From Sandaracinus amylolyticus (lineage in GTDB: Bacteria > Myxococcota_A > Polyangia > Polyangiales > Sandaracinaceae), in assembly GCF_000737325.1 (NCBI RefSeq), contig NZ_CP011125.1, positions 9,858,001-9,922,000 of the forward strand: a stretch of DNA of 64,000 nt, in the 5' to 3' direction. The notes beneath the pieces were generated by a model. That model had not been told where the DNA came from. It made no database searches and worked only from the letters and a program-made list of their open reading frames with translations. This document shows, piece after piece, positions 2,760-61,273 of this stretch; within the stretch, counting starts at the first letter, position 1, and each line of letters opens with the position of its first letter. A program made the translations under genes and the position numbers.

Positions 2760-4391
2760 ATGCGAATCTCGTGTGACTTCCTCGTGCTCGGCAGCGGTGT
2801 CGCCGGGCTCACGTTCGCGCTCGAGGCGGCCAAGCACGGCCAGGTGATCGTCGTCACGAAACGCTCGCTCTCCGACTCGAACACGAACTGGGCGCAGGGC
2901 GGCATCGCCGCGGTGATGGACCCCGCGCACGACAGCTTCGAGGCGCACGCGGGCGACACGCTCCGGGTGGGCTACGGGCTCAGCAAGCCCGAGGTCGTCG
3001 AGATGGTCGTGCGCGACGGGCCGGCGCGCATCCGCGAGCTCATCGCGCTCGGCGCGCAGTTCGACGCGGCGGTGGGCTACTCGGGCTCGGTCGACGAAAC
3101 CGGCGCGATGCCGCTCGATCTCACGCGCGAGGGCGGGCACACCGCGCGCCGCGTGGTGCACGCGGGCGACGTGACCGGGCGCGAGGTGCAGCGCGCGCTC
3201 GTCGAAGCGGTGCGCGCCAACCCGAGCATCCGCGTGCTCGAGAGCCACATGGCGATCGACCTGATCGATCTCTCGAAGCACGGCGGGCCGCACCTCGTCG
3301 CGGGCGCGTACGTGCTCGATCACGTCGCGGGCGCGGTGCACACGATCGCGGCGCGCGCGACCGTGCTCGCGACCGGCGGCGCGGGGAAGGTCTACCTCTA
3401 CACGTCGAACCCCGACGTCGCGACCGGCGACGGGGTCGCGATGGCGTATCGCGCGGGCGCGCTGGTCTCGAACATGGAGTTCTTCCAGTTCCACCCGACC
3501 TGCCTGTTCCACCCCGCGGCGAAGTCGTTCCTCATCAGCGAGGCGCTGCGCGGCGAGGGCGGCATCCTTCGTCTCGCCAACGGCGACGCGTTCATGGCGC
3601 GTCACCACGACATGAAGGACCTCGCGCCACGCGACGTGGTCGCGCGCGCGATCGACTTCGAGATGAAGCGCACCGGCGCCGAGCACGTGATGCTCGACAT
3701 GACGCACAAGAACGCGTCGTACCTGCGCGAGCGCTTCCCGAACATCTACGAGGAGTGCCTCAAGTTCGGCATCGACATGGCGGTGCAGCCGATCCCGGTG
3801 GTGCCCGCGGCCCACTACATGTGCGGCGGCGTCGTGGTCGATCTCGAGGGACGCTCGACCGTGCCCGGGCTCTGGGCGATCGGCGAGGTCACGTGCTCGG
3901 GGCTCCACGGCGCGAACCGGCTCGCGTCGAACTCGCTGCTCGAAGGGCTCGTGTACGGGCATCGCGCGGCGCGCGCGCTCGCGGGGGCGCGCAGCGAGAC
4001 GCGGTTCCCCGACGTGCCCGAGTGGGACGTGGGCGAAGCCGCGCCGAGCGACGAAGCGGTCGTGGTCACGCAGAACTGGGACGAGCTGCGGCGCTTCATG
4101 TGGAACTACGTCGGGATCGTGCGCAGCGATCGCCGGCTGCGACGCGCCGCGCGGCGCATCGCGCTCCTGAAGGACGAGATCCGCGAGTACTACTGGGAGC
4201 ACCTCGTCACGCTCGATCTGCTCGAGCTGCGGAACATCGCGGACGTCGCGGAGATGATCGTGTCGTGCGCGAGCGTGCGCCGCGAGAGCCGCGGGCTGCA
4301 CTTCAACATCGATCACCCGCAGACCGATCCGGCGCAGGCGCACGACACGCGCATCGTGAAGGGCGAGCCCGGGCACCTCGCGGCGCGCTGA
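2760..4391 (+). CDS. nadB: L-aspartate oxidase
   Basis: NadB oxidises L-aspartate to iminoaspartate with FAD, the first step of de novo NAD synthesis. The 543-aa protein opens with an FAD dinucleotide-binding fold (LVLGSGVAGLTFALEAAKHG, residues 8-27). NTNWAQGGIAAV, GREVQRALVEAV, FFQFHPT, and GLHGANRLASNSLLEGLV near 383-400 are typical of the succinate dehydrogenase/fumarate reductase flavoprotein family as found in NadB. The C-terminal helical domain (LRRFMWNYVGIVR) is present. Length matches the family. No nadA or nadC is adjacent, so it appears to be monocistronic, followed by a pair of palindromic repeats. The ATG is preceded by a promoter-like hexamer instead of a clear ribosome site. 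Confidence 0.96.
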   Translation: MRISCDFLVLGSGVAGLTFALEAAKHGQVIVVTKRSLSDSNTNWAQGGIAAVMDPAHDSFEAHAGDTLRVGYGLSKPEVVEMVVRDGPARIRELIALGAQFDAAVGYSGSVDETGAMPLDLTREGGHTARRVVHAGDVTGREVQRALVEAVRANPSIRVLESHMAIDLIDLSKHGGPHLVAGAYVLDHVAGAVHTIAARATVLATGGAGKVYLYTSNPDVATGDGVAMAYRAGALVSNMEFFQFHPTCLFHPAAKSFLISEALRGEGGILRLANGDAFMARHHDMKDLAPRDVVARAIDFEMKRTGAEHVMLDMTHKNASYLRERFPNIYEECLKFGIDMAVQPIPVVPAAHYMCGGVVVDLEGRSTVPGLWAIGEVTCSGLHGANRLASNSLLEGLVYGHRAARALAGARSETRFPDVPEWDVGEAAPSDEAVVVTQNWDELRRFMWNYVGIVRSDRRLRRAARRIALLKDEIREYYWEHLVTLDLLELRNIADVAEMIVSCASVRRESRGLHFNIDHPQTDPAQAHDTRIVKGEPGHLAAR

Positions 4392-24853: not shown

Positions 24854-25147
24854 AGGGCTGCATCGCGCGTCGCGACGGCGCGACGGCCGCTGCGAGCCTT
24901 CGCAGCGCGCCTCGAGCGCGCGTGACGCGCGCTGCGGGCCTCCCCAGCGCGCATCGCGACGGCGTCACGGGCGCTGCGAGCCTTCCCGGCGCGCGGTGAG
25001 ACGGCGTCACCCGCGCTGCGCGCCTCCCCAGCGCGCGATCCGCCGGCGAGCGCACCGCTGCGAAGCTTCGTACCGCGTGATCCGCCGGCGAACGCACCCC
25101 TGCGAAGCGTCGCAGCGGCCGATCCGCCGGCGCACAGGCCGCTACGG
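24854..25147. repeat. seven-copy degenerate 42-bp tandem repeat
   Basis: Seven units of exactly 42 bp run from 24854 to 25147, with boundaries at 24896, 24938, 24980, 25022, 25064 and 25106. Each unit ends in a form of CGCTGCGA. Units 3-4 share CTCCCCAGCGCGC-type starts and the last three share GATCCGCCGGCG. Divergence between copies is substantial. Because 42 is a multiple of three, both strands stay open as 14-residue repeats (for example a 93-codon leftward frame 25097-24816). The array fills most of the 387-bp space between the leucine-rich-repeat gene and the FAM20-like gene; I see no other feature there. Composition argues against a real protein. Confidence 0.85.
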
Positions 25148-56732: not shown

Positions 56733-57539
56733 GTGTCGCGGACCGATCGCCGCCTTCTCACGGAGCCCTCGTTGCCGAACGCCTCCTCGCCCGAAGCCAT
56801 CGTCCCCGAGGCCGACTCTCTCGAAGCTCAGCGCAAGCGCGAGGTCCCGCGCGACTTCGACGACGTCGCGGACACCTACGACTTCCTCACCGGGCTGAAC
56901 CCCGGCTACCACCGCCACCTGCGGCTCAGCGCCGAGCGCCTCGTGCTCCCGCGCGGCGCACGCGTGCTCGACCTGTGCTGCGGCACCGGCCTGTCGACCG
57001 AGGCGCTGCGCGTCACGTACCCCGACGCCGACATCGTCGGGCTCGATGCGTCGGAGGGCATGCTCGCGGTCGCGCGCCGCAAGGAGGTGCTCGCGGGCAT
57101 CGACTTCGTGCACGGCGACGCGACCGATCCTCGCGCGGCGGGCGTCGAGGGCCCGTTCGACGGGATCCTGATGGCGTACGGGATCCGCAACATCGCCGAC
57201 CCCGATCGCTGCCTGCGCAACCTGCGCGCGCTGCTCGCGCCGGGCGGGCGCATCGTGTTCCACGAGTACTCGGTCGCCGAGTCGCTGACCGCGCGCGCGG
57301 TGTGGGACGCGGTCTGCTACGGGATCATCATCCCCGGCGGGCTCGTCACCGCGGGCGACGCGCGCATCTATCGCTACCTTCGCCAGAGCGTCGTGTCGTT
57401 CGACGGAGTGCGCGCCTTCGAGGCGCGCCTCGCGCGCGCCGGCTTCGAGCGGGTGCGCACCGAGCCGATGGACGGCTGGCAGCGCAACGTGCTGCACAGC
57501 TTCGTCGCGCACGCGCCGTCGCAGGTGGAGCGAGAGTGA
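56733..57539 (+). CDS. crtT: CrtT-like/UbiE-type methyltransferase
   Basis: A 268-aa SAM methyltransferase. Motif I VLDLCCGTGLSTEAL near 85-99, an acidic strand IVGLDASEGM and a post-motif DGILMAYGIRNIADPDRCL are as in UbiE/MenG. The N-terminal ADTYDFLTGLNPGYHRHL is what I associate with CrtT from actinobacterial aromatic carotenoid clusters. Between crtB and crtU, that role is favoured over quinone methylation, but both are possible. GTG 56733 is the start; the stop overlaps the crtU GTG (GTGA). Confidence 0.82.
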   Translation: MSRTDRRLLTEPSLPNASSPEAIVPEADSLEAQRKREVPRDFDDVADTYDFLTGLNPGYHRHLRLSAERLVLPRGARVLDLCCGTGLSTEALRVTYPDADIVGLDASEGMLAVARRKEVLAGIDFVHGDATDPRAAGVEGPFDGILMAYGIRNIADPDRCLRNLRALLAPGGRIVFHEYSVAESLTARAVWDAVCYGIIIPGGLVTAGDARIYRYLRQSVVSFDGVRAFEARLARAGFERVRTEPMDGWQRNVLHSFVAHAPSQVERE

Positions 57540-59113
57540 CCGGGGATCGCCTCGCGCTCGCGCCGCGCCCGTCGCTCGCCGAGCGGCTCGGGCTCGGTCG
57601 CCGCGAGGTGCGCGGTGCGTTCCGCGGCACGCGCGAGCGCGCGGAGCCGGGCACGCGCGTCGCGGTGATCGGCGGCGGCATCGCGGGCACGAGCGCGGCG
57701 TGTGTGCTCGCCGAGCGCGGCGTCGAGGTGGTGCTCGTCGAGAAGGAGCCGTTCCTCGGAGGGCGCCTCGCCGCGTGGAGCGAGCGCCTGCCCGACGGGC
57801 AGCACTTCATGATGGAGCGCGCGTTCCCCGCGTTCCATCGCCACTACTACAACCTCCGCGCGATCCTGCGGCGCATCGATCCCGAGCTCGCGTCCCTCGA
57901 GGCGCTGCCCGACTATCCGATCCTCGGGCCCGACGGAACGACCGACTCGTTCGCGGGTCTGCCCACGACCGCGCCGCTCAACCTGATCTCGCTCTTCCGC
58001 CGCACGCCGTGGCTCACGCTGAACGACCTGCGCAAGATCGACGGCGAGTCGTTCCGCGCGATGCTGACGTTCGATCCGATCCGCAGCTACGGCGAGCTCG
58101 ACGATCGCAGCGCGCGCGACTGGCTCGATCGGCTCGCGCTGCCGCCGCGCGCGAGGGAGATGCTCTTCCGCGTCTTCTCGCGCTCGGTGTTCAACCGCGA
58201 AGAAGCGATCAGCGCGGCCGAGATGATTTCGCGCCTGCACTTCTACTTCCTCGGCAACCCCGAGGGCCTGCGCTTCGACGTGCTCGAGGAGCCGACCAGC
58301 GACGTCCTGTGGAAGCCGATGGAGCGCTACCTCGCGCGCCACGGCGTCGAGCTGCGCATGGGCGTGAGCGCGACGAAGATCGAGCGCGACAAGATCGGCG
58401 CGACGCGGGTGCACCTCGAGGACGGCTCGATCATCGCGTGCGACGGAGCGGTGCTCGCGACGTGCGTGCCCGCGCTGCGCGAGCTCGTGGCGCGCTCGCC
58501 CGATCTGCACGAGAGCGCGGAGTTCGCGCGCTCGATCGACTCGCTCACGACGAGCGCGCCGTTCGCGGTGCTGCGGCTCTTCCTCGATCGCCCGGCGAGC
58601 CCCGATCGTCTGCCGCACGTGAACGTCGCGGGGCTCGGCGCGCTCGACCAGATCACGATCTTCGATCGCTTCGAGGGCGAGAGCCGCCGCTGGGCGCGAC
58701 GCCACGGCGGCACCGTGATCCAGCTGCAGGCGGTCGCGCTCGCGGAGGGACGCGAGGAGCGCGCAGTGCGCAACGAGATGGTCTCGACGCTGCGCGCGGT
58801 CTACGCGGAGCTCTCGGACGCGAACGTGCTGCACGAAGTCATGATGGTGCGGCAGGACCAGCCGGGCTTCGCGCCGGGCAGCCACGCGACGCGCCCGCGC
58901 GTCGTCACGCCGTACGGCAACCTCGTGCTCGCGGGCGACTACGTGAAGCTGCCGTTCCCGACCGCGCTGATGGAGCGCGCAGCGGCGAGCGGCCTGCTCG
59001 CGGCGAACCAGCTGCTGGACCGCTGGGACGTGCGCGGCGAGCCGGTGTGGTCGATCCCGCCGCGCGGCTTCATCGCGTCGATGCGCTTCGCGGGGTCGCC
59101 CGGCGCCACCTGA
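57536..59113 (+). CDS. crtU: CrtU-type carotene desaturase/methyltransferase (aromatic end-group synthase)
   Basis: A 525-aa FAD protein from GTG 57536. After a 40-residue extension come VAVIGGGIAGTSAACVLAER, VVLVEKEPFLGGRLAAW and HFMMERAFPAFHRHYYNL. The run RSVFNREEAISAAEMISRLH and YFLGNPEGLRFDV is as in CrtU isorenieratene/chlorobactene synthases, which turn a beta-ring into an aromatic ring with methyl migration. The C-terminal GNLVLAGDYVKLPFP is present. It needs a cyclised substrate, and no lycopene cyclase is visible here. Overlap with crtT shows co-translation. Confidence 0.88.
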   Translation: MTGDRLALAPRPSLAERLGLGRREVRGAFRGTRERAEPGTRVAVIGGGIAGTSAACVLAERGVEVVLVEKEPFLGGRLAAWSERLPDGQHFMMERAFPAFHRHYYNLRAILRRIDPELASLEALPDYPILGPDGTTDSFAGLPTTAPLNLISLFRRTPWLTLNDLRKIDGESFRAMLTFDPIRSYGELDDRSARDWLDRLALPPRAREMLFRVFSRSVFNREEAISAAEMISRLHFYFLGNPEGLRFDVLEEPTSDVLWKPMERYLARHGVELRMGVSATKIERDKIGATRVHLEDGSIIACDGAVLATCVPALRELVARSPDLHESAEFARSIDSLTTSAPFAVLRLFLDRPASPDRLPHVNVAGLGALDQITIFDRFEGESRRWARRHGGTVIQLQAVALAEGREERAVRNEMVSTLRAVYAELSDANVLHEVMMVRQDQPGFAPGSHATRPRVVTPYGNLVLAGDYVKLPFPTALMERAAASGLLAANQLLDRWDVRGEPVWSIPPRGFIASMRFAGSPGAT

Positions 59114-59188
59114 GCGCTCTTTAGCCGCGTTCGTAGACTCGTCGGGTCGTGTGCGCCGCCGATAGGCTCGCGGCGTGGAGGTGCCACG

Positions 59189-59860
59189 ATGCGGATGCTC
59201 GGCTCCAGCTCTTCGCTCGCGACGTTCCGATACGACCTCGTGTTCCTGCACGCGAGCTTGCTCGCCGATGATCGCCCAGCGGTGAACGCGCTCGCGCCGC
59301 GCGTCGCCGCGAAGCTCGCGGAGCTCCGCGCCGAGCGCGACGCGTTCGAGCTCGCCGAGGACGCGGCGGTGGTGTTGCGCGCCCGCAAGGCTCGTCGAGA
59401 CGCGGTGCTCGACAAGCAGGTCATCGGATTCGGCGGGCACGTGCGAGCGATCGATCCGACGCTCTACGCGGTGTTCTTCAAGTCGCTGAGCCCGTCGCGC
59501 GTCGCGAAGCTCGGGCTCGACGACGAGCTCGAGCAGGTGCGGCGCATCGTCGGCGAGCTGGCGCGGCTGCCCGCCGATCACGCGGAGCGCGCGGCCTACG
59601 AGACCTCGCTCCGCGGCGCGCTCGACGCGCTGGTCACCGCGAAGGCGGCGAGCAACGAGGCCGACACCGCGCTGGCGCTCGCACGCTCGCGCGTCGAGCA
59701 GTTCAAGCTCGAGCTCGACCGCACCCGGGTGGAGCTCCACGGCCAGCTGGTGACGCTCAGCCGCAGCAAGGGCGAGGCGGACGACTTCTTCCGTCCCACC
59801 GCGACCGCGCCCGCGAACGACGACAACGAGGGCGATCCCGTCACGCCCCCCGCGAGCTGA
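59189..59860 (+). CDS. helical/coiled-coil protein of unknown function
   Basis: A 223-aa protein, mostly helix: long charged heptad-like stretches at about 30-75 and 140-195 (LAELRAERDAFELAEDAAVV, ARSRVEQFKLELDRTRVELH) with a short non-helical centre (VIGFGGHVRAIDPTLYAVFF). No signal peptide or membrane segment. GGAGGTG lies about 8 bases before ATG 59189. It follows the carotenoid genes in the same direction but its role is unknown. A hairpin follows. Confidence 0.72.
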   Translation: MRMLGSSSSLATFRYDLVFLHASLLADDRPAVNALAPRVAAKLAELRAERDAFELAEDAAVVLRARKARRDAVLDKQVIGFGGHVRAIDPTLYAVFFKSLSPSRVAKLGLDDELEQVRRIVGELARLPADHAERAAYETSLRGALDALVTAKAASNEADTALALARSRVEQFKLELDRTRVELHGQLVTLSRSKGEADDFFRPTATAPANDDNEGDPVTPPAS

Positions 59861-59867
59861 CGCCGTC

Positions 59868-59899
59868 GGGCCCTCCGCGTACGCCGCGCCGGGGGGCCC
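59868..59899 (+). terminator. GC-rich hairpin after the coiled-coil gene
   Basis: GGGCCCTCCG (59868-59877) can pair with CGGGGGGCCC (59890-59899) through a 12-base loop, with one G-T pair. It lies 8 bases after the stop; no T-run. Confidence 0.45.
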
Positions 59900-59971
59900 T
59901 CGATGCGTCGCGTCGCCGTCGTCGCGCCGGGAGAGACGCTGGCGACGCGCGCGGCGACCGTGGTCGCGGCT

Positions 59972-60236
59972 GGAGAACGCCTCTCGAGGATCTCGGGAGG
60001 CGTTTTCTCGTCTCGAGAAGGGCTCTCGAGGATCTCGGGAGGCGCTTTCTCGTCTGGAGAAGGGCTCTCGAGGATCTCGGGAGGCGTTCTCTCGCCTGGA
60101 GCAAGGCTCTCGAGGATCTCGAGAGGCGTTCTCTCGCCTGGAGAAGGCTCCTCGAGGATCTCGAGAGGCGTTCTCTCGCCTGGAGAACGTCCGGGGAAGC
60201 GCTCGAGGACGGCTCTCTCGCCTGGAGAACGGTCGC
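59972..60236. repeat. six-copy 42-bp tandem repeat rich in CTCGAG and hairpins
   Basis: Six full 42-bp units begin at 59972, 60014, 60056, 60098, 60140 and 60182, with 13 bases of a seventh to 60236. Most units contain GGAGAA, CTCTCGAGGATCTCG and GGCGTTCTCTCGCCT. In units four and five CTCTCGAG and CTCGAGAG form an 8-bp perfect stem around GAT. The last unit is diverged. The array fills the space between the convergent coiled-coil and Rieske genes and ends on the Rieske stop. Both strands stay open as 14-residue repeats, but I see no sign of a real protein. Nothing else is seen in 59861-60235 besides the hairpin at 59868. Confidence 0.9.
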
Positions 60237-61273
60237 TACTCCGCTTCGGCCGGTGCCGGGATCTCCGCGTCGTCGACGACGGTCAGCGGCTTCTTCTTCG
60301 TGCGCAGCTCGTACGTGCGCTCGCAATACTGCGCGTCGTCGTCCCAGAGGCGCGCCGAGCGCGCCTGCACCAGCTTGCGCATCAGCGCGCCCGCGCGCGG
60401 CAGCCACGCCATCCGTGGGCGCTCCGAGTACGCCAGCGTCGCTTCGACGATCGCGGTGCGCCCCGTCTCGATCGGCGTCGCGTGGGTCTCGACCAGCGAG
60501 CCCACGCCTTCGCCCGCGACGATCGTCATCACGATGCTGCGCGGATCCGGGCAGTGGAACCGCGCGTCGACCTCCATGCCGACCCGCCCCGCGATGCGAT
60601 AGACGACGCGCACCGTGATCGACTCCGCGTCCTCGCCGATCACCCGCAGGCGCGCGAACGAGTGCGGATGGAAGTGCGCGCCGTGCCAGGGATCGAGCCG
60701 GTTCGCGATCACGTCTTGCGTCGCGCAGCGCGCCTCGGTGCGCACCACCGCGTCGAGGAAGCGCGGCGGGCGCACCGGGAGGATCGGCGCGTCGGTCGGC
60801 GCCTCGCCCGGCGCGAGCAGCGCCGTGGCACGGACCCACGTCAACACTCCGTCGTCGTGCGTGCGTAGCGGGGCCCACCCTCCGTGCGCCGTCTTCCCGA
60901 GCGCGAGCCCGTGCCACGGGCACACCACCTCGCCGCTCGCGCTCACGTGCCCGCACGAGAGCGACGCGCCCATGTGCGGGCACGCGTCCGGCGCGACCTT
61001 CACGCGCTCGCCGTCCCACCACGCGACGAGCTCGCGGCCTGCCACCACGTAGTGGCGCGGTCCCTTCGCCTCGCGCACCGCTCGCGTCGCGTCGAGGACC
61101 GCCCAGCCGCCGCTCGGCTTCGCGCTCGCGCGCGCGAGCGCGGTCCGGATGCGCCGGGGGTCGGCTTGGATCCAGTCGGGCTCGGGGGGCGACATCGGGC
61201 GCCCGGCGACCTCCGCGGGGTCGCGTCCGAGCAGCACGAGGGACCCATCGACGCGGACCGGAAATGTAGGCAT
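60236..61273 (-). CDS. Rieske 2Fe-2S protein of the DUF5914 type
   Basis: A 345-aa oxygenase-like protein. The Rieske cluster is at about residues 88-120: CPHMGASLSCG and VVCPWHGLALG, giving two Cys and two His ligands. The downstream domain (LDPWHGAHFHPHSFARLRV, YRIAGRVGMEVDARFHC) has two His and an Asp as possible non-heme iron ligands and matches the DUF5914 pattern that I recall beside actinobacterial carotenoid genes. It may oxidise the aromatic end group. Leftward start ATG 61273; the 42-bp array starts where it stops. Confidence 0.82.
   Translation of the reverse strand: MPTFPVRVDGSLVLLGRDPAEVAGRPMSPPEPDWIQADPRRIRTALARASAKPSGGWAVLDATRAVREAKGPRHYVVAGRELVAWWDGERVKVAPDACPHMGASLSCGHVSASGEVVCPWHGLALGKTAHGGWAPLRTHDDGVLTWVRATALLAPGEAPTDAPILPVRPPRFLDAVVRTEARCATQDVIANRLDPWHGAHFHPHSFARLRVIGEDAESITVRVVYRIAGRVGMEVDARFHCPDPRSIVMTIVAGEGVGSLVETHATPIETGRTAIVEATLAYSERPRMAWLPRAGALMRKLVQARSARLWDDDAQYCERTYELRTKKKPLTVVDDAEIPAPAEAE

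What the first reader, a model, noticed from the sequence alone, without database searches (positions are those of the whole stretch)
59972..60236. Six-copy 42-bp array with nested hairpins between convergent genes
The unit carries CTCTCGAG-GAT-CTCGAGAG stems and repeated GGCGTTCTC/GAGAACGCC complementary segments, so RNA from either strand would fold into a row of hairpins. It begins exactly at the Rieske stop. A bidirectional terminator-like or RNA-stabilising role, or a binding array, are all possible.
Basis: partly seen in the sequence, partly recalled or inferred. Interest (0 to 1): 0.6.

Follow-up and report, generated by a model that had tools for sequence, protein, structure and literature searches.

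The report
Intergenic hairpin repeats of fixed length
A short repeat array between two genes of a soil myxobacterium turns out to be one of many intergenic arrays in that genome whose sequences differ but whose repeat unit is almost always about 42 letters long, which hints at an unexplained length rule.

Summary
The array is real: 6.2 copies of a 42-bp unit at 59970-60231, between convergent genes, its right edge at the Rieske stop. Both strands fold better than a null that keeps the periodicity (z -4.5 and -3.3). The strongest piece is unit 1 (59970-60013): a 17-bp uninterrupted stem, -28.2 kcal/mol, identical over 44 bp in a congener. Four other units folded singly do little better than shuffles.

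The array is not unique. In a 1.64-Mb sample of this genome, 14 of 34 intergenic regions with tandem repeats have a period of 41-43 bp (binomial P about 1e-12). Their unit sequences are mostly unrelated. The congener has such arrays too; a 0.37-Mb sample of another genus of the family shows none. Within two families 42 of 45 unit spacings are exactly 42 bp although variable parts differ by up to 70%. The class is not confined to convergent gaps.

Best reading: fast-evolving non-coding satellites with a held unit length; here unit 1 probably works as a bidirectional transcript-end hairpin. What holds the length is unknown.

The parts
59970..60231 (.). 42-bp tandem array, 6.2 copies, near-palindromic units (family A)
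   Evidence: TRF; sequence
59970..60013 (.). Unit 1: 17-bp stem with 3-nt loop; probable bidirectional transcript-end hairpin
   Evidence: Fold -28.2 kcal/mol on +, -21.2 on -; longest identical run with G002, 44 bp
60014..60231 (.). Diverging tandem copies of the unit, weaker hairpins
59189..59860 (+). Left gene, 223 aa, no Pfam match
60236..61273 (-). Right gene, Rieske (PF00355) and DUF5914 (PF19299)
24864..25136 (.). Second 42-bp array in the window, unrelated unit, between two - strand genes: another member of the class

Best explanation
The array is a short non-coding satellite of a Sandaracinus class: intergenic arrays whose unit sequences change quickly and together within a locus, while the unit length stays at 42 bp, give or take one. 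At this locus unit 1 most likely acts as a stem-loop that ends or protects transcripts arriving from the left gene and, being nearly palindromic, also those from the right. The later units are diverging tandem copies. Shown: the array, the class, the shared period, the conservation of unit 1, joint change of units in orthologous arrays. Inferred: termination or stabilisation by unit 1, and a constraint (not mere inheritance) that holds the length.
For: Period peak: 14 of 34 array-bearing gaps at lag 41-43 and 5 at 83-85, 0 arrays in shuffles, P 6.5e-13. Same class in G002 and orthologous arrays in place. Exact spacing in 42 of 45 units of families A and B despite large sequence change. Substitutions to short indels 234:6 in arrays, 29:4 in flanks, p 0.022. 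Units rewritten together in the L115 array against G002. Gain or loss of a whole array at L102. Unit 1: strongest stem and 44 identical bp; chance of no difference in 44 bp is 0.0009 at the array's own rate, 0.026 at the pooled flank rate. Class nearer to 3' than 5' gene ends, medians 89 and 197 bp, p 0.024. Dyad axis kept across family A.
Against: No transcription data. No canonical terminator by consensus scan. The family-A array L062 folds no better than its null (z -0.4 and -1.3) and only 7 of 22 class members do at p<0.05 by consensus unit. Three arrays lie in divergent gaps. Arrays change about three times faster than their flanks, which speaks against a sequence-specific role. The indel test rests on 4 and 6 events.
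Confidence: 0.45

Rival explanations
1. Neutral satellites of common descent. One old 42-bp array seeded copies around the genome; sequences have saturated and the length has simply been inherited. Hairpins come from palindrome-correcting template switches and do nothing.
For: Families occur at several loci; weak likeness between some families, e.g. L102 and L109, L100 and L101; arrays change faster than flanks; a whole array is present or absent between species; hairpin excess is not universal.
Against: About a dozen units show no more likeness than chance (10 of 136 pairs at p<0.05, 6.8 expected), yet lengths agree within one base. Fewer indels per substitution than flanks. Unit 1 here is unusually conserved.
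Confidence: 0.3
2. Spacing-dependent DNA scaffold. A nucleoid or segregation protein binds every four helical turns with little regard to sequence, and selection keeps the spacing.
For: Period close to 4 x 10.5 bp; a small group of arrays with 20-22 bp and none near 31 or 52; slight internal likeness at lags 20-22; low indel rate.
Against: No protein identified. Periods of 41 and 43 drift out of phase over an array. The helical hints were found and judged on the same arrays.
Confidence: 0.15
3. Sequence-specific operator or centromere-like array for one DNA-binding protein.
For: Family A and B each keep a constant segment at fixed spacing. The F-plasmid centromere sopC has 43-bp tandem units with an inverted repeat (recalled; papers seen only as a search listing).
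Against: Units are mostly unrelated across the class and even orthologous arrays rewrite their units.
Confidence: 0.06
4. REP/BIME element moved by a REP-associated transposase.
For: Short intergenic palindromes in arrays, several loci per family.
Against: No Y1_Tnp (PF01797) in 3 of 3 genus genomes, while 5 of 14 control genomes ring. No constant GTAG or CGTC tag in family-A units. Few loci per family.
Confidence: 0.04

Closest known systems
Non-coding prokaryotic satellites, e.g. Leptospira interrogans 46-bp families (Subirana and Messeguer 2019, PMC6749651; outline, passages and sections 10 and 11 seen)
   Same: Intergenic tandem arrays of tens of bp, at several loci, more than one family with the same unit length in one species (three 46-bp families in its table 2)
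   Different: The paper sees families as transposed copies and, in what I saw, draws no rule from unit length; here about a dozen unrelated families share 41-43 bp, often with hairpins. The term search found no myxobacterium in its text.
Borg tandem repeats (PMC9879509; passages seen)
   Same: Many independently arisen, fast-evolving arrays in one genome, half of them intergenic
   Different: Borg units are perfect copies, A-rich and, in the passages seen, of varied length (18, 20, 21 nt named)
REP/BIME elements (PMC3733652; passages seen)
   Same: Short palindromes in gaps, sometimes in arrays
   Different: No tag, no RAYT gene, unrelated sequences
Bidirectional intrinsic terminators
   Same: Unit 1: long G+C stem in a gene-end gap with U-rich 3' side
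   Different: No U-tract beyond the stem by the consensus scan; many tandem copies
sopC centromere of plasmid F (recalled; papers only as search listing)
   Same: 43-bp tandem units with an inverted repeat
   Different: One sequence, one binding protein, one site; here many sequences at many sites

Membership tests
Non-coding prokaryotic satellite | At least four tandem copies outside coding sequence | tested here: met
   6.2 copies, gap 59861-60235
Non-coding prokaryotic satellite | Related arrays at other loci of the genome | tested here: met
   Two further family-A arrays
REP/BIME | RAYT (Y1 transposase) gene in the genome | tested here: not met
   PF01797 absent from 3 of 3 genus genomes
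REP/BIME | Constant GTAG or CGTC tag at one end of the palindrome | tested here: not met
   Unit listing: no GTAG; CGTC only in the L062 and L069 units, CGCC in most window and L061 units
Intrinsic terminator | G+C-rich stem followed by a T run | tested here: inconclusive
   17-bp stem in unit 1; scan finds no stem followed by at least 5 T in 8; the T-rich stretch is paired in the lower stem
Intrinsic terminator | RNA 3' ends at the hairpin | not testable with these tools
   No RNA data
Known RNA family (Rfam 15) | Match over the gathering score | tested here: not met
   19 sub-threshold rows, none over its gathering score
sopC-like centromere | One repeat sequence bound by a ParB encoded beside it | not tested
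   No search for parAB genes was made

The most novel reading that the evidence does not exclude
Sandaracinus carries a genus-level system of period-locked arrays: perhaps a hundred or more intergenic loci (extrapolated from a 16% sample) whose DNA is free in sequence but held at four helical turns per unit, because a structural protein or an amplification machine measures length. The array found here is one member, with its unit 1 co-opted as a transcript-end hairpin.
Probability: 0.15. Interest if true: 0.85.

Novelty: new variant of a known kind. Interest (0 to 1): 0.55.

Why it matters
Tandem repeats in bacterial gaps are usually taken as accidents of single sequences. A genome in which unrelated arrays share one unit length asks what measures that length: a protein, the replication machinery, or common descent. 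Two sequenced species with orthologous, lost or gained, and rewritten arrays make the question testable with existing genomes and one RNA-seq or footprinting experiment.

Tried and rejected
Convergent-gap terminator as the rule for the class: rejected. By my gene calls, arrays of 40-43 bp lie in 11 co-directional, 5 convergent and 3 divergent gaps, plus 2 that overlap a called gene. Two arrays without a gene table (L061, L062) were left out of that count; by ORFs they are convergent.

Whole-unit palindrome as a defining trait: not met by all (8 of 24 at p<0.05, coding controls 0 of 17). Best-hairpin and MFE tests gave 5 and 7 of 22, coding controls 0 and 1 of 17.

REP/BIME with RAYT: no Y1_Tnp. 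Known RNA family: none. The 80 loci as a period control: no clear 41-43 peak, but the distant ones hold low-complexity stretches that match at nearly every lag, so they are a poor control. The 18-bp array of G044 with a similar motif was not pursued.

Rows dropped before counts: L147 (overlaps the window); 198 of 606 gaps shorter than 104 bp; spacings over 48 bp, where a motif was missed; 43-bp units and the 41-bp unit; TRF rows under 2.8 copies; two coding 42-bp arrays of L092, counted and moved to the controls. G002 and G007 genes were called with the codon model of G000.

Full report
What is there. The window lies in a 10,327,335-bp single-contig genome. Size, single contig and 72% G+C fit Sandaracinus amylolyticus DSM 53668 (PMC5010890; abstract start in a search listing, and passages); the assignment is my inference. 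TRF finds 6.2 copies of a 42-bp unit at 59970-60231. The gap is bounded by a 223-aa + strand ORF without Pfam match, ending at 59860, and a - strand Rieske/DUF5914 gene ending at 60236. A second, unrelated 42-bp array lies in the same window at 24864-25136.

Folding. The array folds better than dinucleotide shuffles on both strands (z -5.1 and -3.4). Those shuffles destroy the periodicity, so I permuted unit columns instead, which keeps period and copy divergence: z -4.5 and -3.3, 0 of 150 nulls each. Single units tell more. Unit 1 makes a 17-bp uninterrupted stem of -28.2 kcal/mol on + and a hairpin of -21.2 on -, while four other units folded on + have z -1.65 to +0.55. Unit 1 is also the longest stretch identical to the congener G002, 44 bp at 59970-60013, although the array as a whole differs at 35 of 238 aligned sites. 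The consensus scan sees no canonical terminator; the U-rich stretch is paired in the lower stem.

Relatives of the array. The same kind of unit occurs in two more arrays of this genome, near 2.93 and 9.39 Mb, both between convergent ORFs. Of 56 genomes searched, three have a match: this one, G002 of the same genus, and G044 with a short 18-bp array. In G002 the arrays of the window and of 2.93 Mb sit at the orthologous places, flanking DNA 87-95% identical. There about 580 bp with a + strand ORF lie between the array and the Rieske ortholog, so neither the contact with the Rieske stop nor the convergent setting is conserved.

The class. I sampled 80 evenly spaced 20-kb stretches plus the window, dropped one overlapping stretch (1.644 Mb, 16% of the genome), and called genes with a codon model trained on the sample (1375 genes, 90% coding). 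Of 606 gaps of 60 bp or more, 408 were long enough to test. 34 hold a tandem repeat; the fundamental lag is 41-43 bp in 14 and 83-85 in 5, against no array in one dinucleotide shuffle of each gap. A uniform spread over the 96 lags tested would put about one in 41-43 (P 6.5e-13; 1.5e-8 for 10 of 30, a rough count of independent groups set by hand). The lag profile of the whole sample shows the same spike, with nothing at 37-39 or 44. Unit sequences are mostly unrelated: 10 of 136 pairs of units at p<0.05, 6.8 expected. In 0.40 Mb of G002 TRF finds three arrays of about 42 bp, two of which my gene calls place partly inside called genes. 0.37 Mb of G007 (same family, draft assembly) shows none in gaps. 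At the density of this genome about four would be expected there, so the absence is suggestive only.

Length and sequence. In families A and B, measured between constant motifs, 42 of 45 spacings are 42 bp, two are 43 and one is 41. The variable 27-nt part of B differs between distinct units by 43% on average and up to 70%, against 19% in the constant 15 nt, and tends to keep a stem (mean score 5.9 against 3.5 in shuffles). Family A keeps one dyad axis with 70.5% Watson-Crick cells, next best axis 49%, and three pairs with a double change. Between G000 and G002, four orthologous arrays show 234 substitutions and 6 short indels, four flank stretches 29 and 4 (Fisher p 0.022). Arrays differ at 22% of sites, flanks at 8%. 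Within a genome the units change together: the L115 array and its G002 counterpart carry different but internally uniform units. The L102 array is missing at the orthologous site of G002. These are marks of satellites under concerted evolution.

What holds the length is open. Common descent with saturated sequence is the plain answer, and families at several loci support dispersal. The low indel rate and the number of unrelated families speak for something more. 42 bp is four helical turns; a few arrays have 20-22 bp (two turns), none near 31 or 52; self-identity inside the arrays is slightly raised at lags 20-22. These hints were found and judged on the same arrays and prove nothing.

Function here. 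I take unit 1 as a bidirectional stem-loop that ends or protects transcripts: strongest stem, full conservation, near-palindrome, 109 bp past the left gene's stop. The class lies nearer to 3' ends than to 5' ends of genes (medians 89 and 197 bp, p 0.024), which fits but may only mean that promoters are avoided. Against a general terminator role: most arrays lie in co-directional gaps, three in divergent ones, and L062, of the same family, shows no folding excess. All three family-A arrays of this genome are in convergent gaps, which make up 49 of 606 gaps and 12% of gap bases, but the G002 ortholog of this one is not.

Literature. Eight searches listed no paper whose title or abstract start reports a shared unit length among unrelated intergenic arrays, or tandem repeats in Sandaracinus gaps. 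In the genome paper the term search found 'repeat' only in connection with CRISPR. The library lacks most subscription journals. The nearest precedent I saw is Leptospira interrogans with three 46-bp families in one table (PMC6749651).

Noticed in passing
Sample loci L097 16983-17543, L131 13984-14453, L142 16850-17255, L128 3876-4204 and more than a dozen further gaps: A dispersed palindromic element of about 85-95 bp, mostly single, in some gaps in tandem with units of 84-100 bp: a second repeat family of this genome, MITE- or REP-like.
   Followed up: no
L117 4443-4940, L131 17863-18078, L107 13705-13923, L101 14768-14907, L097 12474-12993, L120 9632-9753: A conserved stretch of about 100 bp shared at 92-94% by several gaps, not a tandem repeat.
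   Followed up: no
L121 11194-11487, L174, L176; G002 loci L172, L175, L177, L181: Family B: AT-rich for this genome (48% G+C), constant GAGTCAGAATT segment alternating with a variable hairpin, at several loci in both species.
   Followed up: partly
L070 about 2890-3030 (G044, another family of the order): 18-bp array TTCTCGCCTCGAGAGGGC that resembles half of the window unit.
   Followed up: no
G002 locus L068, reverse-complement 3241-3822: About 580 bp with an ORF for a small membrane-like protein inserted exactly between array and Rieske ortholog.
   Followed up: partly
window 56733-61273: Neighbouring genes look like a pigment or isoprenoid group: a UbiE-like methyltransferase ORF (by eye), an amine-oxidase-fold FAD protein (PF01593) and the Rieske/DUF5914 protein.
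   Followed up: no
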